Assembly (NCBI RefSeq): GCF_002975205.1
Contig: NZ_PCOC01000002.1
Span: 62,001-126,000 of the forward strand
From: Ochrobactrum vermis
GTDB taxonomy: Bacteria; Pseudomonadota; Alphaproteobacteria; Rhizobiales; Rhizobiaceae
Direction: 5' to 3'
DNA length: 64,000 nt
Shown here: positions 13,351-25,148 of the stretch, piece by piece
Numbering within the stretch: the stretch's first letter is position 1
Layout: each line of letters starts with the position of its first letter
Position numbers and translations under genes: made by a program
The notes under the pieces: model-generated
What the model saw: the letters and a program-made list of their open reading frames with translations, nothing else
The model's database searches: none
Told to the model about the DNA's origin: nothing

Positions 13351-15733
13351 GCTGTTGCTGGCGCTGGGTATCTCGCCCTTGGCCTCTTCTTCGTCAGTGG
13401 CGCAGGTACAGGCACTTGATATAACCGACCCGACCCCGGCACCGGCGGCAGAGCGCACCTTATATCTCGAAGTGTTCATTAACGACGCTTCGATGAAACT
13501 TATCGGGAACTTCAAGCAGTTGTCTGACGGTGGCCTGGCAGCCACGCCTGAGGAGCTGACAGAAGTCGGACTAAAACCGATCGATTCTGCGCGCGCTGAC
13601 GATGGACTGGTAAGGCTCGACCGACTGCCTAACGTTTCTTACAAAATCGATGAACAGGCTCAGCATCTCTACATTACAACCGAGAACAATGCCCGCGCCG
13701 CAAAGGTCATTGATATTGCTGGTAACAACAAAGTGGATCGGCTGACGCCAGAATCTGGCGTTGGCGGTGTATTGAACTACACCTTGTTTGCAAGCTCCAA
13801 CACATTGTTTGACGACGATGTAGAACTTTTTCAAGGAGTTTCAGGCGGTTTTGACGCACGTATATTCAGTTCCTTCGGGACGTTCAGCCAATCTTTTATT
13901 TCCGGGTACAGCAACAACGAACTGGACGCGTTCACCCGACTGAATTCCACCTGGAGCTACTCCGATCCCAAAAGACTCGTCACGTATAAAGCCGGTGACT
14001 TCATCACTGGTGGAACAAGCTGGACACGACCGGTTTATCTTGGTGGCTTGCAGGTTTCACGGAATTTTTCGCTCCGCTCTGATCTTGTAACGCTGCCACT
14101 TCCGTCGTTTGCCGGCACGGCTGCGGTCCCCTCCACATTGGAAGTCTATACGCAGAACGCACGGACTTATACCGGGACGGTGGGCGCAGGGCCATTTCAG
14201 GTAGTCAACCTGCCCGCATTCACCGGTTCGGGCGAAGCGCGCGTCGTCCTCAGGGATAGCCTGGGCCGTGAAACCGTTGCTACGCTGCCGTTTTATGAAT
14301 CGAAGATGCTTTTACGTAAAGGACTGTTGGATTTTTCTGCAGAATTCGGATTTCCGCGCCGGAATTTCGGCATTGAATCGAACGATTATGATGATCGTCC
14401 GATGGGTGTTGCGACAGCGCGTTACGGCTTGACCGACTGGCTGACACTGGAAGGGCATATCGAAGGCGGCGAAGATCTTTTTAATGGCGGGATGGGTGTA
14501 GCGTTTCCTCTCGGCCCTCTCGGCGCAGCCTCTTTCGCCGCAGCTGGCAGTTACTCCAATGGTCAGGCGGGCTCACTCGTAAATGCTAGTATCGAACTCA
14601 GCTACAAGGACTGGACCCTTTACGGTCGCATTCAGCGGGCTTTCGGTGATTATCAGGACATAGCCGCAATCAGCGCCGAGCGTTCGTTTGACAACAACGG
14701 CCTGCCGACATTTAGCGCTGGCGTTCCGCCCGCGCTCGACCAGGTTTCGGTGGGGGTGCCGATGCCATTGGACATGTCGAGCCTTAATCTGTCTTACACC
14801 CACCTGACCGACGCGGATGGAGAACGCAGCAGCATCGTCGGCTTGTCCTACAGCCAGCAAGTGTTCAAACGCAGCACGATCTACGCCACCGCCTTTACGG
14901 ATCTTGAAGAAAAGGACAGTTTTGGTGTTTTTGCAGGATTATCCATTCCCTTCGATAACAATATTACGGCCTCGTCAGGCGTCGAATCCGACCCGGATGG
15001 AACAAACGTTGTTGCTGATATCGTGAAGTCCGAACGTCTGGAAAATGGTAGCGTCGGCTGGCGGTTACGGACCTCAGAAGGACGAGTGGCCAATCGTTCG
15101 GCCTCTGCCAGCTACCGGTCGCCATTCGCACGATTTGAGGCTGGCGTTCAACAGGTCGACGGCGATGTTCGCGCCACAGCACAGGTTGATGGGGCAATCG
15201 CGGTAGCCGGCGGTGGTGTGTTTGCCACCAATCGTATCGACGATGCTTTTGCAGTGGTGGACGTCGGTGCGCCTGATGTCGATGTTCAATACCAGAACCG
15301 GCCCATCGGAAAAACCAACAGTCGCGGCAAAATTATCGTATCAGACATGCGTTCATACGAACCGAACACGGTATCTATCGATCCAAGCAATTTGCCGGTC
15401 GATGCCGAAATTCCACAAACCAAGGAGACGATCATGCCGGCAGATCGCAGTGGGGTTGTCGTCAAGTTTGGAGTTTCCCGAGGTTCGGAGGCTGCACTTG
15501 TTTCTTTTGTGGATGTAAGCGGAACGTTTCTTCCCGTCGGCCTTACCGGAAAGCTCGACGGAAATGGAGAGACTTTCGCAATCGGCTATGACGGCGAAAC
15601 TTATATTCGGGGGCTTCAGTCTTCGAATGTCGTTGTGATCAGCCTGGATGACGGCAGTACATGTCAGGCCGCTTTTCCCTATCGCCCAACCCCTGGACAA
15701 CAGGTGGCGATCAGGAAGGTGGTATGCCAATGA
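13331..15733 (+). CDS. Outer-membrane usher (FimD/PapC-like, CsuD type)
   Basis: About 800 residues. I place the start at the GTG at 13331, because the next residues form a signal peptide (FRSTARLLLALGISPLASS); other non-ATG starts upstream at 13307 and 13229 are open. It has an N-terminal chaperone-binding domain, a long beta-barrel (about 130-650) and C-terminal domains. ERTLYLEVFIN near the N-terminus, and RPIGKTNSRGKIIVSD with YEPNTVSIDPSNLPVDAEI near the C-terminus, are typical of ushers. It overlaps the chaperone gene by 20 bp or more and the next gene by a few bases, so the operon is tightly coupled. Confidence 0.88.
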   Translation: MFRSTARLLLALGISPLASSSSVAQVQALDITDPTPAPAAERTLYLEVFINDASMKLIGNFKQLSDGGLAATPEELTEVGLKPIDSARADDGLVRLDRLPNVSYKIDEQAQHLYITTENNARAAKVIDIAGNNKVDRLTPESGVGGVLNYTLFASSNTLFDDDVELFQGVSGGFDARIFSSFGTFSQSFISGYSNNELDAFTRLNSTWSYSDPKRLVTYKAGDFITGGTSWTRPVYLGGLQVSRNFSLRSDLVTLPLPSFAGTAAVPSTLEVYTQNARTYTGTVGAGPFQVVNLPAFTGSGEARVVLRDSLGRETVATLPFYESKMLLRKGLLDFSAEFGFPRRNFGIESNDYDDRPMGVATARYGLTDWLTLEGHIEGGEDLFNGGMGVAFPLGPLGAASFAAAGSYSNGQAGSLVNASIELSYKDWTLYGRIQRAFGDYQDIAAISAERSFDNNGLPTFSAGVPPALDQVSVGVPMPLDMSSLNLSYTHLTDADGERSSIVGLSYSQQVFKRSTIYATAFTDLEEKDSFGVFAGLSIPFDNNITASSGVESDPDGTNVVADIVKSERLENGSVGWRLRTSEGRVANRSASASYRSPFARFEAGVQQVDGDVRATAQVDGAIAVAGGGVFATNRIDDAFAVVDVGAPDVDVQYQNRPIGKTNSRGKIIVSDMRSYEPNTVSIDPSNLPVDAEIPQTKETIMPADRSGVVVKFGVSRGSEAALVSFVDVSGTFLPVGLTGKLDGNGETFAIGYDGETYIRGLQSSNVVVISLDDGSTCQAAFPYRPTPGQQVAIRKVVCQ

Positions 15734-16686
15734 TGCGCCATTTGAGGTACGCAGTTCTTATTCTCATCGGTCTGACCGCGACTGTTCTGCCGACGGTCGT
15801 GCGGGCGCAGAACTGCTCCTTCGGGGTCTCAGCGTTGAATTTCGGGCAAATCGACACTTTAGGCGGCGCACAGACCACCAGTACGGCTACGTTAAGTGTG
15901 AGCTGTACCGGCACGCCCTTGGCCCGCATTCTGATCTGTCCAAATCTGGGGAGTGGAACCGGCGGCGCAACGGCCTCGTCGCGCCAGATGTCGTCAGGTA
16001 CAAACACGCTCAATTATCAGCTTTTTGCTGATTCAGCGCGTAGTCTAGTTTGGGGATCATATAACTGGCCCTACCCATCGCGCGCGCCTGCACTGGCAAT
16101 GAGCCTGGGAATCCTGGGATCGGGAACCGGCAGCACGACAATATACGGCGCAACGCCTGGAAGTCAGGGAACCGCTTCCCCGGGCAGCTATCTGTCTACA
16201 TTTTCGGGCGCACACGCGGAGTTTCGCTATCTCTATTCAGCCCAAAGCACATGTAGCACCGGCACGGGTACAATTGCCAGGCCCAGTTTTAATGTGACAG
16301 CAACGGTGGCAGCGAATTGTCTTATTGCTACACAGGACGTTGATTTCGGATCCGTTGGCGTGTTGACCTCAAATGTCGACACGACCGGTAGGGTATCCGT
16401 AACTTGCACGCCTGGCACGAATTACACAGTTGGACTGAGTAACGGGAATACCGGTACGTCACCCACCGCGCGACGAATGACGCTGGCCAGTCAAGGCATC
16501 ACATATGGATTGTTCCAAGACAGCGGTCGCAGCCAACCTTGGGGAAACACGGCTGGCACCAATACTATTGCGGGAACCGGAACAGGAACAGCTAAGAATC
16601 TGACGGTTTACGGTCGGGTTCCGCCACAAACGACGCCTGGTCCCGGTGTTTACTCCGATGTCGTTGTCGTAACTGTGGTATATTAA
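15724..16686 (+). CDS. Csu-type pilus tip/adhesin with two spore coat U domains
   Basis: About 320 residues. It starts at the ATG at 15724 or 15730, both preceded by AGGAAGGTGG and overlapping the usher stop. A signal peptide (ILIGLTATVLPTVVRA) leads to a first SCPU domain (CSFGVSALNFGQIDTLG, SVSCTGTP) and a second (CLIATQDVDFGSVGVL, VSVTCTPGTNYTVGLS). Two domains and last place in the operon resemble CsuE, the tip adhesin of archaic pili. The second domain is close to the single-domain pilin at 12114, which suggests duplication (inference). Confidence 0.8.
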   Translation: MPMMRHLRYAVLILIGLTATVLPTVVRAQNCSFGVSALNFGQIDTLGGAQTTSTATLSVSCTGTPLARILICPNLGSGTGGATASSRQMSSGTNTLNYQLFADSARSLVWGSYNWPYPSRAPALAMSLGILGSGTGSTTIYGATPGSQGTASPGSYLSTFSGAHAEFRYLYSAQSTCSTGTGTIARPSFNVTATVAANCLIATQDVDFGSVGVLTSNVDTTGRVSVTCTPGTNYTVGLSNGNTGTSPTARRMTLASQGITYGLFQDSGRSQPWGNTAGTNTIAGTGTGTAKNLTVYGRVPPQTTPGPGVYSDVVVVTVVY

Positions 16687-17591: not shown

Positions 17592-18692
17592 ATGAGATTT
17601 TCCAAAACAAATAGCCTGCTTTCCGCGTTTGTCATTCTGACCCTTTTTCTCAGCGCGATCGGCAGCAGCGTGGCTAAGCAACAGGCCACCCCTTCCCGCC
17701 CGTTGATCGTTGGCGTCTATGTCAGCGCGCCATTTGTAACGAAGGATGGCGATAGCTATTCGGGAATGGCGATTGAGCTATGGGAAAAATCGGCAAAGGC
17801 TCTGGGGCGTACATACGAATATCGCGAATATCCCTCTTTTGAAGCGCTGATTGCAGCCGTCGAAAATGGCGAGGTCCAGGTCGCGATATCGAACCTGACA
17901 ATCACAAAAGAGCGCGCCGCCCGAATACTATTTTCTCAGCCCTGGTACGATGCCGGATTGAGAATAATGGTCGCCAATGAGAATAGCGGTGGTTTTTGGC
18001 AGGTGATCAACGGTCTTGAAAATGCAGGCCATTTGCGCGCCATGCTGTGGCTTATGGCATTTATTGTTTTAGCGACGATCTTTCTCGCGTTTTTCTATCG
18101 GAGGTTTGACAAATCTTTTCCGCGAGAGTGGCACGTCGGATTGGCCGAAAGCTTCTATGATGTCATGTCAGTCACGACATCGGGAAAGATCACGCGGCCA
18201 AATGTGCTTGGCTGGCTAGGTCGTATTTCAGGTGGTCTTTGGATGGTGTGCGGGGTGGCGGTCATTGCCTATGTAACATCGTCCGTTACCAGTGTGATGA
18301 CGGCTCTTTCGCTCACGCACCAGATCAACTCCATTGCAGATCTACCGGGACGAACAGTTGGTGTGCTTGGTGGAAGCGTAGCGGAGATTTATGGCCGTGG
18401 ATTACGGCTTGATGTTAGAAGCTTTGCGGCGACACAAGACGCTATTGACGCTCTTGATAATGGAGAAGTTGATGCGATTGTCGGAGATGCGCCAGTGCTT
18501 GAATATTACGTGCACTCGAATCCGGGGACTGCATTTTCGGTCGTAGGCGCGATTTTCCATCCTGACAAATACGGTTTTGGCTTTCAGCATAATGATCCCA
18601 TCGGCCATGAGGTGACTTTGCAGATATTAGCCCAACAGGAAACCGGAGAACTTGGAGTTCTCCGTCGCAAATATTTTGGAAGTCAACAATAA
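17592..18692 (+). CDS. GluR0-like ligand-gated ion channel (binding domain with inserted pore)
   Basis: 366 residues. A signal peptide (about 1-28) is followed by the first half of a solute-binding domain (about 38-135, with LTITKERAARILFSQPWY), a membrane helix M1 (about 150-169), a pore-loop region (about 182-200, ESFYDVMSVTTSGKIT), a helix M2 (about 211-238), and the second half of the binding domain (about 245-360, with VDAIVGDAPVLEYY). This S1-M1-P-M2-S2 order is that of prokaryotic ionotropic glutamate receptors such as GluR0. At the filter the potassium signature TVGYG is replaced by TTSGK (195-199). The ligand, probably an amino acid, is inferred from Arg108 and Asp300 at the usual positions. 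Ion selectivity is uncertain. Confidence 0.8.
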   Translation: MRFSKTNSLLSAFVILTLFLSAIGSSVAKQQATPSRPLIVGVYVSAPFVTKDGDSYSGMAIELWEKSAKALGRTYEYREYPSFEALIAAVENGEVQVAISNLTITKERAARILFSQPWYDAGLRIMVANENSGGFWQVINGLENAGHLRAMLWLMAFIVLATIFLAFFYRRFDKSFPREWHVGLAESFYDVMSVTTSGKITRPNVLGWLGRISGGLWMVCGVAVIAYVTSSVTSVMTALSLTHQINSIADLPGRTVGVLGGSVAEIYGRGLRLDVRSFAATQDAIDALDNGEVDAIVGDAPVLEYYVHSNPGTAFSVVGAIFHPDKYGFGFQHNDPIGHEVTLQILAQQETGELGVLRRKYFGSQQ

Positions 18693-18783
18693 TCGAAGGA
18701 GGGTAATGAACTGGTAATCCCCCCGCCAAATAACGGACTTCAAAAGTAGAATTTTCTCGGGCTATATGATCGAGGAGATTTTG

Positions 18784-19047
18784 ATGAAGACGAGCAGATT
18801 CATCGAACCGCAAATCCTTGCCATCCTTCGCCAGGCGGAAGGCGGCGTTCCTGTACCCGAGTTATGCCGGGAACATGGAATGAGCACTGCGTCATTCTAC
18901 AAATGGCGATCCAAGTACGGTGGCATGGATGCCTCGATGATCAGCCAGATGAAGGCTCTGGAGGACGAGAACCGTCGCCTGAAGAAGATGTATGCGGAGA
19001 TGAGCATGCAGGCGGAACTGCTCAAAGAGGCTCTTGGAAAAAAGTGA
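18784..19047 (+). CDS. IS3-family transposase OrfA
   Basis: 87 residues from the ATG at 18784, with GAGGAG 5 bases upstream. It has a helix-turn-helix ([37 protein letters not shown]) and a C-terminal leucine-rich coiled coil ([20 protein letters not shown]). Near its end the A_AAA_AAG heptamer (19038-19044) sits in the frame that allows a -1 shift into orfB just before the TGA at 19045. This is the standard way IS3 elements make the fused transposase. Confidence 0.92.
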
Positions 19048-19871
19048 CGCGGCCATCTCAACGCCGGGAGATGGCCGGGAAAGCAGTGGCGTTGCGAGGG
19101 GTGAGCGTTGCGCTTGCCTGCCGCACCTTCGAGGTCAGTGAGACATGTTATCGTTACAGCGCCAGGCTGAACGACGAGAACGAGCAGATTGCCGATCTCC
19201 TGATCGGACTGACGCGGGCAAAGAAGACCTGGGGCTTCGGTCTGTGTTTCCTTTATCTGCGCAATGTCCGGGGGCATCACTGGAACCATAAACGCGTTTG
19301 CCGCATCTATCGTGAGCTTGAATTGAACCTCAGGATCAAGCCGCGCAAGCGGTTGAAGCGGGACAAGCCCGATGCTCTGACCGTGCCAGATGCGCCGAAT
19401 ATGGTCTGGTCCATGGATTTCATGGCCGACCGGCTGGAGGATGGAAGGCAATTCCGGCTGCTGAACGTCCTGGACGACTTCAACCGCGAAGGTTTGGGCA
19501 TTGAAGTAGACTTCTCGCTGCCTGCTGAACGCGTCATCCGCAGCCTCAACCAGATCATCGAATGGCGCGGCAAACCATTCGCAATTCGTGTTGATAATGG
19601 GCCGGAATACGTCAGTGGCAACCTGATGGAGTGGGCTGCCAACCAAGGCATCGCCTTGAGCCATATCCAACCCGGCAAACCACAACAGAATGCGTATGTC
19701 GAGCGCTACAATCGCACCGTTCGGAATGAGTGGCTCGACCAATACATCATCGAAAGCATTGAGGAGGCGCAGGAATTTGCCACGCAGTGGCTATGTTGAG
19801 GTGGACGGCTCCCGGCGGCATCGAATGTGCCAGAATGAGTTCGTTGAAATCTCAATCGAGGGAGACCGCCC

Positions 19872-20906
19872 GTGGAACAGATTATCCGAATCGGCATGGA
19901 TACGTCAAAAAGCGTTTTCCAACTGCATGAAGTGAACGTGATGGAGCAGCCCATCTTGCGGAGAAAACTTTCGCGCAAGGAGATGCTGAAGTTCTTCGAA
20001 AATACACCGCCAACCACCGTTGCGGTGGAAGCATGCGGTGGTTCTCACCATTGGGCCCGATTGCTAGGTTCGTTTGGCCATGATGTGAAGCTAATTGCTC
20101 CGCAGCTCGCCAAGCCTTATGTCAAGCGTGGCAAGAACGACGCTGCAGATGCCGAAGCTTTGTGTGAGGCGATGAGCCGCCCGACGATGCGGTTCGTTAC
20201 CGTGAAGACGGCCGATCAGCAGGCAGCTTTGATGCTGGTCGGAGTCAGGCAGAGACTACTGCACAATCGCACCCAACTGGCCAATGCCATTCGTGGTTTT
20301 GCTATGGAGTTTGGGGTCGTCGCGGCGAAGGGTATGTGCCGAATAGAACCCTTGTTGGAGCGCCTTGCAGCAGATGGATCCCTCCCGGAATTGGCGCGCG
20401 AACTGTTCGCCATGCATGGAGAGGAGCATCGCGAATTGCTTCGGAAAATTGAAGTAGTCGATGAAAAGCTGATGAAGTTGCATCGCGCTGACGAATGCAG
20501 CAAGCGCCTGGCCGAAATCCCCGGTGTCGGCCCGGTGGGGGCTTCACTTCTGATGATGAAAACTCCAGATCCGCGGATGTTCAAATCCGGTAGAGACTTC
20601 GCAGCCTGGATTGGTCTAACACCGAAGGACCATTCCACTGCCGGAAAAGTGCGACTCGGGGTAATCACTCGAGCCGGAGATGAGATGCTGCGAAGCGTAC
20701 TGGTTGTCGGGGCAACATCTCTTCTTCAGCATGTTAGATCAGGTCGAAGCAGGCATGCCTCCCCATGGCTCCTTGGGCTTCTGCAAAGAAAGAGACCAAA
20801 GCTTGTGGCCGTAGCGCTCGCCAATAAGATCGCGCGAATCGCGTGGAAGCTCATGATCAGTGGTGAGACCTACCAGCGGGCAGAGGGCCAGAGGCAGACA
20901 GCATAG
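19872..20906 (+). CDS. IS110-family (IS1111 group) transposase
   Basis: 344 residues from a GTG at 19872 with GGGAGACC upstream. The N-terminal RuvC-like DEDD domain shows GMDTSKSVFQLH (Asp9), VAVEACGG and KNDAADAEALCEA. The C-terminal Transposase_20 domain holds IPGVGPVGASLLM and FAAWIGLTPKDHSTAGK with the serine region conserved in the family. These enzymes recombine DNA with the help of an RNA encoded in the noncoding part of the element, here downstream. The frame is intact and the element probably active or recently so. Confidence 0.93.
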   Translation: MEQIIRIGMDTSKSVFQLHEVNVMEQPILRRKLSRKEMLKFFENTPPTTVAVEACGGSHHWARLLGSFGHDVKLIAPQLAKPYVKRGKNDAADAEALCEAMSRPTMRFVTVKTADQQAALMLVGVRQRLLHNRTQLANAIRGFAMEFGVVAAKGMCRIEPLLERLAADGSLPELARELFAMHGEEHRELLRKIEVVDEKLMKLHRADECSKRLAEIPGVGPVGASLLMMKTPDPRMFKSGRDFAAWIGLTPKDHSTAGKVRLGVITRAGDEMLRSVLVVGATSLLQHVRSGRSRHASPWLLGLLQRKRPKLVAVALANKIARIAWKLMISGETYQRAEGQRQTA

Positions 20907-21174
20907 GAGATTAGCCATCATGGCAAGCGGTGACGAGGTCGCTGCCGTGCTGAGCTGATGCTGTGAACTTGCAACAGAAGAGCAGATGATGCGATCGGAG
21001 GATCCAAGACGTGTAAAATCCGTTAGGTCCAATGGCCCTCAAAGGCCGAGGCTATGTTAGGAACACGCGTTGCGGAGATCATCTTGGCCAGTGGTCATGT
21101 GCGACCACATCGAAAGGCCGCACATATGGAAGCAAGCTATCCGCTCGAAATTATCTGAAAAAATGCTTGCAAGT
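20907..21174 (+). ncRNA. Putative bridge/seek RNA of the IS1111 element
   Basis: This is the noncoding segment between the transposase stop and the right subterminal repeat. It contains TAGGTCCA (21024-21031), a hairpin GGCC-CTCAAA-GGCC (21034-21047) and GGCTATG (21050-21056). TAGGTCCA is the complement of the right half of the insertion site (TGGACCTA) and GGCTATG equals the left half. A second hairpin, GTGGTC-ATGTGC-GACCAC (21091-21108), enclosed by GGCC/GGCC, is followed by CACATATGG (21121-21129), which matches the right end of the element across the junction (21185-21193). The layout of target and donor loops is as expected for IS110-type guide RNAs. The transcript ends are not known. 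Confidence 0.75.
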
Positions 21175-21430
21175 GGGAACCGTCCACATATGGACCTACA
21201 ACAACGAACGTCCCAATATGGGCATCGGCGGCGTAACGCCCGCACAGAAACTGAAAATGGCCGCGTGAATTCTACTGACGAGCCCCGTTAAAAACGGGGG
21301 GATTACCACCTGTCGTGGCGGCGAGTTTAACGCCCGCGTTGTCTCGAGCGCCGGGTTTCTACGCGAAATTTATAACTGTGACATTGTTGGTAACGATTGC
21401 CGATACGAGCGACCCAGAAATACGTCGTAG

Positions 21431-24050: not shown

Positions 24051-25148
24051 CTAGTCACCTGAATCTGAAGTTCGGTTCATTGTTTTCTGGCAGAAACGCT
24101 TGACCGACGCGAGGATTTGATCGGCAGATTTAACCCATTTGTAGGGTGTGGGGCTTTCGTTGTGTGCTTTGATGAAGGCATTAATGTCAGCCTCGAGTTC
24201 TGCTGTTGAACGGTGTGCGCCACGCTGTAACTGCTTTCGCGTCAGTTCTGCAAACCAACGTTCGACCTGGTTAATCCAGGATGCCGACGTAGGTGTGAAG
24301 TGAACATACCAATGAGGTCGCCGCGCGAGCCATGCTTTGATCTTAGGTGTCTTGTGGGTTGCATAGTTATCCATCACCAGATGGACGTCTGGCCCGTCGG
24401 GCAATTCGGCGTCGATCCGTTTTAGAAAGTCAAGAAATTCAGCGGCTCTGTGACGCTTGTAGCAACGACCGATTACCGCGCCAGTGGCAACGTCGAGCGC
24501 GGCAAATAGGGAAGTTGTGCCATTGCGCACATAAGTATGCGTCCGCCGTTCAGGGATACCCGGTGCCATTGGCAGAACTGGCTGCTCACGATCCAGCGCC
24601 TGGATTTGCGACTTCTCATCTACGCATAGAACAATCGCCCGATCTGGTGGCGACATATAAAGCCCAACAATGTCCTGGACCTTGTCAACAAACAGCGGAT
24701 CGGTGGACAGTTTGAATGTCTCCGATCGATGTGGTTGCAAGCCAAAGGCTCGCCAGATCCGCCGGATAGTGGTGTGCGAAAGCCCGCTATTGGCTGCCAT
24801 CGAACGGATGGACCAGTGCGTGGCATCTGTGGGTATAGTGTTCAACGTACGCTCAACAACCTGAGCAACCTGCGCATCGGAAACCGTTCGTGGTCGACCT
24901 GCACGATACTCATCTGTCAGGCCTTCAATGCCATCCTGTGCAAACCGGCGGCGCCACTTACCAACAGTATGTTCGTGAACACCCAGGCGTTCGGCAACCT
25001 CCTTGCTGTGCAGACCCTGAGCGCACAGTAAAATCATCTGGCAACGATCTGACAAGGAACGTGGCGCTTTATGCTTACGCACCTGGGATTCAAGGAACTT
25101 CTTATCCGCCTCGTTCAGAACGACGAGGTCCGCTGGCCGGCCAATCAT
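24051..25148 (-). CDS. IS630-family transposase
   Basis: 365 residues. The N-terminal part has paired helix-turn-helix regions ([42 protein letters not shown]). The DDE catalytic core has [19 protein letters not shown] and [11 protein letters not shown]. Both the length and the motifs look complete. Its TAG stop codon is formed by the CTAG at the very end of the element, so the target TA is part of the stop. Confidence 0.92.

What the first reader, a model, noticed from the sequence alone, without database searches (positions are those of the whole stretch)
20907..21192. Guide RNA of an IS1111 element whose target-binding segments match its own insertion site
Seen in sequence: the empty site, rebuilt from both flanks, reads CAGTGGCTATGGACCTACAA. 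The noncoding region after the transposase contains GGCTATG (21050-21056), identical to the left half of the site, and TAGGTCCA (21024-21031), the complement of the right half (TGGACCTA). They flank a hairpin GGCC-CTCAAA-GGCC. A second hairpin region (21086-21119) is followed by CACATATGG (21121-21129), identical to the element's right end plus junction (21185-21193). Established knowledge: IS110-family elements, including the IS1111 group, use an RNA with separate target and donor loops to choose their site. Inference: this is the bridge/seek RNA, and the element's specificity can be read from its loops. A partner for the other donor guide was not firmly found.
Basis: partly seen in the sequence, partly recalled or inferred. 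Interest (0 to 1): 0.85.

Follow-up and report, generated by a model that had tools for sequence, protein, structure and literature searches.

The report
Guide RNA of a jumping gene
A bacterial jumping gene carries an RNA whose short guide stretches spell out the place where it sits (inside another jumping gene) and, it seems, its own ends; related elements that sit elsewhere carry matching, changed guides, so targets can be read from sequence.

Summary
Observation confirmed; interpretation supported and extended. Window 19794-21190 (1397 bp) is an IS1111-group element inside an IS3-family transposase gene; two uninterrupted copies of that IS3 in the same genome carry the exact empty site. The noncoding region after the transposase encodes a two-domain RNA with covarying stems. 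Over 103 elements, RNA 21024-21031 follows the right flank (complement) and 21050-21054 the left flank; 46 held-out elements repeat this, and IS5075/IS4321 fit by eye. The missing partner is most likely 21079-21081, complementary to the left end; it covaries over the whole set, but not in the few recent changes (0 of 5 sister pairs), so it is less sure. Donor bases had been predicted by eye for three IS1111 elements in print; I found no covariation test of them in the papers searched. Weaker signals suggest 'handshake' bases in mirror image to IS621. Verdict: new member of a known kind, useful as comparative evidence that links the 'seekRNA' and 'bridge RNA' accounts.

The parts
18766..19047 (+). 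orfA of the host IS3-family element
   Evidence: PF01527 HTH_Tnp_1
18864..19793 (+). 5' part of the IS3 orfB (DDE transposase) that the IS1111 element interrupts (ORF start as listed mechanically); its 3' part runs to about 21268
   Evidence: PF00665/PF13683; two uninterrupted copies in the same genome
19794..21190 (+). whole IS1111-group element, 1397 bp
   Evidence: sTIRs plus 7/3 bp extensions; boundaries fixed by uninterrupted copies L165 and L164
19794..19800 (+). left extension TGTTGAG (LE1-LE7), beginning with the core TG
   Evidence: covaries with RNA 21055-21057 and 21079 over the whole set
19801..19813 (+). left subterminal inverted repeat GTGGACGGCTCCC
   Evidence: 12 of 13 match to the right arm
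19872..20906 (+). DEDD transposase, 344 aa, intact frame
   Evidence: PF01548 and PF02371 above cut-off; closest named relative in the listing ISRsp4, 86%
20907..21174 (+). noncoding region that encodes the guide RNA
20983..20999 (+). 5' arm of the long-range stem that closes the guide RNA (pairs with about 21140-21157)
   Evidence: duplex -18.4 kcal/mol in the window; mean -20.4 in 52 clade elements (window included) against -9.8 (sd 3.2) with shuffled 3' arm
21004..21075 (+). target domain: outer and inner stems around an internal loop that holds both target guides
   Evidence: helices 1-3 (91.4, 99.3 and 99.2% of cells paired); all 10 pairs of helix 1 have double changes
21024..21031 (+). 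right target guide (RTG), complement of right flank +1 to +8
21033..21048 (+). apical hairpin between the target guides
   Evidence: helix 3, 99.2% of cells paired
21050..21056 (+). left target guide (LTG): same sense as left flank -5 to -1 plus core TG
21057..21057 (+). candidate target-loop handshake base, same sense as LE3
   Evidence: 92 of 103 (expected 42); held-out 40 of 46 (expected 37); no LE3 change in any sister pair
21079..21081 (+). probable left-end donor guide (RDG), complement of LE6-LE4
   Evidence: LE6/21079: 91 of 103 (expected 64), held-out 39 of 46 (expected 23), 0 of 20,000 permutations; against: 0 of 5 sister-pair changes concordant; LE5 and LE4 almost invariant
21085..21120 (+). 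donor-domain hairpin (stem 21085-21089/21116-21120 and an inner stem)
   Evidence: helices 4 and 5, 100% and 98.7% of cells paired
21121..21128 (+). right-end donor guide (LDG) CACATATG, same sense as right end plus core
   Evidence: RE-2/21125: 102 of 103 (expected 42), held-out 46 of 46 (expected 18); 6 of 6 sister-pair changes
21129..21130 (+). candidate donor-loop handshake bases, same sense as right flank +3 and +4
   Evidence: +3: 55 of 103 (expected 28), held-out 23 of 46 (expected 14), sister pairs 5 of 25; +4 sister pairs 1 of 24
21167..21172 (+). TTGCAA, -35-like half of a promoter completed when right and left ends join (-10-like TATGTT across the junction, 16 bp spacer)
   Evidence: fixed-register score 7.7 over 149 elements against 4.1 (sd 1.4) shuffled
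21175..21187 (+). right subterminal inverted repeat GGGAACCGTCCAC
21188..21190 (+). right extension ATA

Best explanation
This is an IS1111-group insertion sequence with its guide RNA. The transposase mRNA and RNA are probably made from a promoter formed when the excised element closes into a circle (inferred). The RNA folds into a target domain and a donor domain. [quoted passage not shown] The DEDD transposase, loaded with this RNA, aligns target and circle junction and exchanges strands at TG without duplicating bases. This copy is set for a codon stretch of an IS3 transposase gene and sits in one. Shown here: anatomy, boundaries, uninterrupted sites, guide-flank and guide-end covariation, RNA stems. 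Inferred: transcription, protein binding, strand exchange, present activity.
For: Exact uninterrupted sites in the same genome. sTIRs, 7/3 extensions and downstream noncoding region as defined for IS1111 (against PMC11187229). Own flank against foreign flank: 27 of 41 perfect 8-nt complements, 0 of 10,000 permutations. Position by position, 103 elements (window included): LF-3/21052 97 of 103 (expected 31), RF+8/21024 80 of 103 (expected 27), RE-2/21125 102 of 103 (expected 42), LE6/21079 91 of 103 (expected 64); held-out 46: 41 (14), 25 (11), 46 (18), 39 (23). In 63 disjoint sister pairs, when LF-3 differs both members match their own guide in 27 of 33, RF+8 in 18 of 35, RE-2 in 6 of 6 (null means 2-3%). 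RNA stems: 132 double-change cells against 34 (sd 4.7) in shuffles. Close relatives (85-87% transposase) have other targets and correspondingly changed target guides: L170 and L169 (ISRsp4), L003, L172. IS5075/IS4321 and a Klebsiella element show all four segments, by eye, under the same rules.
Against: No RNA, protein or transposition was measured. One copy only in this genome. 34 of 150 loci with a transposase match gave no sTIR under my rule and were dropped, among them eight at 81-88% identity. RTG matches are imperfect in many elements (held-out 24 of 43 to 32 of 46 per position +3 to +8). The left-end guide: in sister pairs where LE6 differs 0 of 5 are concordant at 21079, and for LE7/21078 1 of 15, so its signal rests on older differences and could owe part to descent; LE7/21078 is a mismatch in the window (48 of 103 overall) and LE3-LE1/21082-21084 do not exceed expectation. 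Single-sequence folding gives z -0.80 and does not show the consensus fold.
Confidence: 0.88

Rival explanations
1. seekRNA-only model: the RNA reads the target alone; the ends are recognised by the protein through the sTIRs, and the donor-like segments are DNA-level repeats or leftovers without a guide role.
For: PMC11187229 reports that an 82-nt ISEc11 RNA with the target guides was sufficient for transposition in their assay, and describes no donor guide in the parts read. The left-end segment shows no concordant recent change: 0 of 5 for LE6. Right-end variation is small and mostly tied to subgroups.
Against: Both donor segments track the element ends over 149 elements, one by complement and one by identity, on the two sides of one conserved stem; RE-2/21125 changes together in 6 of 6 sister pairs; IS5075, IS4321 and L268 fit by eye.
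Confidence: 0.15
2. A second layer exists besides the guides: handshake bases after each 3' guide (21057 with LE3; 21129-21130 with RF+3/+4) pair with the partner DNA after strand exchange, as in IS621 but on the opposite strand.
For: RF+3/21129 55 of 103 (expected 28) and 23 of 46 held-out (expected 14, permutation p 0.002), sister pairs 5 of 25 (null 2.5%); LE3/21057 92 of 103 (expected 42), 40 of 46 (expected 37, p 0.014); corresponding register to IS621 positions 81 and 166 (passages).
Against: LE3 never differs within a sister pair, so descent alone could explain it; RF+4/21130 only 1 of 24 sister changes and held-out p 0.05; GTTNGGAAC can form a small stem tying 21057 to 21063 instead; L078 breaks the LE3 rule. 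RF+3/21129 is not among the three best columns for RF+3 in the held-out table.
Confidence: 0.35
3. Matches are chance or come from copying of flanking DNA into the element.
For: Each match alone is only 7-9 nt.
Against: 0 of 10,000 permutations; held-out replication; the flank is ordinary IS3 sequence in the uninterrupted copies.
Confidence: 0.01

Closest known systems
ISRsp4 (Sinorhizobium fredii NGR234 pNGR234a)
   Same: 86% identical transposase, same ends TGTTGAG...ATA, same RNA architecture and donor segments
   Different: Target guides and target differ (RTG TTAGGCCCA; a gene annotated as IS630 family transposase overlaps its right junction); a second TG lies at that junction
IS1111-group seekRNA (ISEc11, ISKpn4, ISPst6, ISPa11; PMC11187229)
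   Same: RNA downstream of tnp; top-strand complement 5' of bottom-strand match; sTIR with 7/3 extensions; natural retargeting between relatives (ISEc11/ISXne4)
   Different: Donor guides are not described in the parts of that paper I read (5 of 9 parts); here the right-end one is well supported and the left-end one probable
IS110-group bridge RNA (IS621; PMC11208160, PMC11208158)
   Same: Two loops with target and donor guides on opposite strands; core in the target guides and right-end guide; candidate handshake bases 3' of the second guide
   Different: RNA lies in the right, not left, end; guide order is reversed, so the 3' guides read the bottom strand
IS5075/IS4321
   Same: All four guide segments seen by eye under the same rules at a right flank TTCCGTTTTCTGAGACG; that this is the Tn21-family terminal repeat is recalled and agrees with a title in the reference lists
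   Different: About 39% identical transposase, other target, right flank begins TT
ISEc21 (IS110 group)
   Same: Also targets codons of IS3-family transposase genes
   Different: Different family, upstream RNA, other codons (around the second D of DDE)

Membership tests
IS1111 group | DEDD transposase with C-terminal PF02371 | tested here: met
   PF01548 43.4 bits, PF02371 75.3 bits, both above cut-off; DTSK, VAVEA, KNDAADA motifs found (assignment of the D, E, D, D residues recalled)
IS1111 group | GL-P----S(t)G motif, occasionally TA | tested here: met
   GLTPKDHSTAG, read as the TA variant named in PMC11187229
IS1111 group | Subterminal inverted repeats of 11-13 bp | tested here: met
   12 of 13
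IS1111 group | 7 bp left and 3 bp right extension, no target duplication | tested here: met
IS1111 group | Long noncoding region downstream of tnp with top-strand complement 5' of bottom-strand match | tested here: met
IS1111 group | Promoter formed by joined ends | tested here: met
   By sequence only: TTGCAA-16-TATGTT; activity not testable
IS1111 group | Circular intermediate; RNA co-purifies with transposase | not testable with these tools
   needs bench work
IS110-type bridge RNA | Target guides in one loop of the RNA | tested here: met
IS110-type bridge RNA | Donor guides for both element ends in the same RNA | tested here: inconclusive
   Right end met (102 of 103, 46 of 46, sister pairs 6 of 6); left end covaries overall (91 of 103, 39 of 46) but 0 of 5 in sister pairs
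IS110-type bridge RNA | Core dinucleotide contained in all four guides | tested here: not met
   Present in RTG, LTG and LDG; the left-end guide at 21083-21084 does not follow LE1-LE2
IS110-type bridge RNA | RNA in the left end, L-guide 5' of R-guide | tested here: not met
   RNA lies in the right end with the order reversed

The most novel reading that the evidence does not exclude
IS1111-group guide RNAs are mirror-image bridge RNAs. [quoted passage not shown] One conserved RNA-DNA geometry would then underlie both families despite the reported reversal of guide order.
Probability: 0.35. Interest if true: 0.65.

Novelty: new member of a known kind. Interest (0 to 1): 0.5.

Why it matters
On 149 natural elements it shows that IS1111 target choice can be read from sequence. 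It gives comparative support for a right-end donor guide, and probable support for a left-end one, in IS1111 RNAs (donor bases were predicted by eye for three elements in print, while another study found a target-only RNA sufficient). It turns the difference between the seekRNA and bridge RNA accounts into specific base changes that can be tested, and it shows retargeting among elements 85-87% alike.

Tried and rejected
Single-sequence folding: not more stable than shuffles. Rfam: no match. First sTIR finder picked wrong repeats in some loci; replaced by an anchored finder, after which L077 and L092 were removed as misdetections. First held-out run used only plus-strand matches and gave 16 elements; corrected (88 loci, 68 with sTIR, 22 dropped as duplicates). 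One search stopped with an index error after its main table; the remaining counts were run. An IS621-like handshake placement (21032 with RE-1) is not supported, 24 of 149. 21032 as complement of LF-1 (52 of 103; 23 of 46) could be an RTG extension or an RNA pair with 21054; the 17 discordant rows do not settle it (7 against 3). Transposase genes at insertion points: one stop-free stretch reaching the boundary was scanned for each of 30 hand-picked elements of the 52 in the clade (mostly long stretches); 10 hit a transposase family above cut-off, against 2 of 20 control stretches 2 kb away (20 of 38 listed); Fisher one-sided p 0.057: suggestive only, and the choice was not random. Dropped rows: 34 of 150 loci without detectable sTIR were not examined further, 4 more lacked flank or region length and 7 were duplicates. 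In one search I gave 48 of the 52 clade RNAs to the alignment (L169, L050, L079, L052 left out as near copies). Odds changed on checking: one search gave 0 of 5 concordant sister changes for LE6/21079 and 1 of 24 for RF+4/21130, so I lowered the best explanation (it includes the left-end guide) from 0.93 to 0.88, the handshake reading and the novel case from 0.4 to 0.35, and raised the target-only rival from 0.12 to 0.15.

Full report
What is there. Window 19794-21190 is a 1397-bp element: a left extension TGTTGAG, subterminal repeat GTGGACGGCTCCC, an intact 344-aa DEDD transposase (19872-20906; PF01548 and PF02371), a noncoding region, the repeat GGGAACCGTCCAC and the extension ATA. It interrupts orfB of an IS3-family element between ...CAGTGGCTA and TGGACCTAC.... 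Two uninterrupted copies of that IS3 in the same genome (L165 at C2:311738 and L164 at C1:598746) carry the exact site, so the boundaries are direct observations. The TG at the junction can be assigned to either side. The noncoding region has one match in the genome. The genus contains a genome whose match and contig length equal those of Ochrobactrum quorumnocens plasmid NZ_CP022605.1, and a contig of the same length as a Brucella thiophenivorans contig; from this I infer that the window belongs to the GTDB genus Brucella. The species is not known to me.

Relatives. The closest named relative in the listing is ISRsp4 of Sinorhizobium fredii NGR234, 86%. I collected relatives from genus, family and order, genome and viral contigs (the former kept the best 80 of 578) and plasmids. 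Of 150 loci with a transposase match, 116 gave subterminal repeats; 34 did not and were dropped. After removing two misdetections, four without enough flank or region and seven duplicates, 103 elements remained (window included), 52 of them at least 58% identical in the transposase.

Target guides. In an earlier set of 41 elements with different flanks, the reverse complement of the own right flank (8 nt) is found perfectly in the own noncoding region in 27, against 0.7% for foreign flanks; mean 7.49 against 5.90, 0 of 10,000 permutations. For six left-flank bases plus TG (40 elements) the mean is 6.88 against 5.98, 0 of 10,000. Column-by-column analysis without assuming positions puts each left-flank base -5 to -1 on RNA 21050-21054 (same sense) and right-flank bases +3 to +8 on 21029-21024 (complement) as the best-scoring pair, both in the 52-element clade and in all 103. 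In 46 held-out elements from class and phylum searches the same pairs rank first: 32, 41, 41, 43 and 42 of 46 for LF-5 to LF-1 (expected 12-14), and from 24 of 43 (+7) to 32 of 46 (+5, +6) for the right flank (expected 11-13). Among 63 disjoint sister pairs, where left-flank base -3 differs both members match their own guide in 27 of 33 (null mean 2%). Elements 85-87% alike point at different sites: the window TAGGTCCA/GGCTATG, ISRsp4 type TAGGCCCA/ACCATG, L003 TAGACTCA/CGTTATG, L172 CCAATTCCA/TGCCGTG.

Donor guides. Across the group 21122-21126 follow the right end: RE-2/21125 102 of 103 (expected 42) and 46 of 46 held-out (expected 18); RE-4/21123 46 of 46 held-out (expected 23); where RE-2 differs in a sister pair both members follow in 6 of 6. 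Variants include ACATATG, ACATCTG, ACACATG, ACAGAAG, ACACAAG, ATAGATT and ATACGTT. The partner most likely lies just before the first GGCC of the donor hairpin: 21079-21081 is complementary to LE6-LE4. LE6/21079 matches in 91 of 103 (expected 64) and 39 of 46 held-out (expected 23; 0 of 20,000 permutations); LE7/21078 in 48 of 103 (expected 26) and 23 of 46 (expected 14; p 0.002). By class: LE ending TGCT, TGCC or TGCA has G at 21079 in 13 of 13, TGAG and TGAT have T in 8 of 9, but TGAC 0 of 4, TGTC 0 of 3 and TGAA 1 of 3 fit. Against it: in sister pairs 0 of 5 LE6 differences and 1 of 15 LE7 differences are concordant, LE7/21078 is mismatched in the window, and LE3-LE1 show no signal. So I hold the right-end guide at about 0.85 and the left-end guide at about 0.7. 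IS5075, IS4321 and a Klebsiella element, 39-42% identical, show all four segments by eye at the same places.

Structure. RNAalifold on 48 clade RNAs gives two domains. The counted structure has 96.5% of cells paired (shuffles 86.1%), 18 of 28 pairs with double changes and 132 double-change cells against 34 (sd 4.7) in shuffles; slid versions reach at most 22. The structure came from the same alignment, which favours it, but the margin is large. A long-range stem (20983-20999 with about 21140-21157) closes both domains: mean -20.4 kcal/mol in the 52 clade elements against -9.8 (sd 3.2) with the 3' arm shuffled. The predicted lengths, about 72-90 and 175 nt, resemble the short (70-100 nt) and long (145-170 nt) seekRNAs in PMC11187229. 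A promoter-like pair TTGCAA-16-TATGTT appears across the joined ends, as described for circles of this kind.

Handshake signals. In IS621, bases 3' of the second guide of each loop pair with the partner DNA next to the core after strand exchange (PMC11208158, passages). Here the base after LTG plus core (21057) has the sense of LE3 (92 of 103, expected 42; held-out 40 of 46, expected 37) and the base after LDG plus core (21129) has the sense of RF+3 (55 of 103, expected 28; held-out 23 of 46, expected 14, p 0.002). This would be the mirror image of IS621. It is suggestive, not proven: LE3 has no change within sister pairs, RF+3/21129 has 5 of 25 and RF+4/21130 1 of 24 (null about 2%), RF+3/21129 is not among the three best columns in the held-out table, and a local stem could explain 21057.

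Mechanism. Most likely the transposase-RNA complex holds the joined ends of the circle in the donor domain and the target in the target domain and exchanges strands at TG. Shown: anatomy, boundaries, covariation, stems. Inferred: everything that needs an experiment. That this is an IS1111 guide RNA that sets the target I hold at about 0.93; the statement with both donor guides at 0.88, lowered.

Known or new. PMC11187229 (parts 1-5 of 9 read) established target guides for IS1111 and found an 82-nt RNA sufficient for ISEc11. PMC11208160 (section 12 read, passages elsewhere) predicted a guide RNA in 93.0% of IS1111 elements and, by manual inspection of six elements, three of them IS1111, base pairing with target and donor; it notes potential donor-binding bases in a multiloop in many IS1111 orthologues. 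The kind is therefore known. My searches (listings, with passages of PMC12859917 and PMC12045711) showed no covariation test of IS1111 donor guides and no handshake claim for IS1111; the library holds only open-licence papers and no preprints, so this does not show that none exists.

Targets. Of 30 boundary stretches scanned, 10 hit a transposase family above cut-off (IS3 rve, IS66 five times, DDE_Tnp_1, Mutator, IS240, ISL3), against 2 of 20 control stretches 2 kb away (p 0.057). The 30 were hand-picked from 52. Guides may often be set on other mobile elements, as known for ISEc21, but this sample does not establish it.

Noticed in passing
window 17592-18692 (+): 366-aa protein with a solute-binding domain (SBP_bac_3) whose match spans a ligand-gated ion channel match (Lig_chan just below cut-off; Lig_chan-Glu_bd above): looks like a prokaryotic ionotropic glutamate receptor.
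   Followed up: partly
window 24051-25148 (-): 365-aa DDE_3/HTH transposase, IS630-like by recall.
   Followed up: no
window 15661-16686 (+): Protein with two spore coat protein U (SCPU) matches.
   Followed up: no
L169 right junction (about 2520): ISRsp4 in NGR234 has an extra TG between its right end and the target, as if the core were doubled.
   Followed up: no
L050, L051, L079 (Microvirga sp. VF16 pMVF16-2): Copies of one relative with the same noncoding region sit at three similar sites in one plasmid, all with a right flank lacking the usual TG; a natural multi-copy test of guide tolerance.
   Followed up: no
L059 right end: The right end is doubled in tandem.
   Followed up: partly
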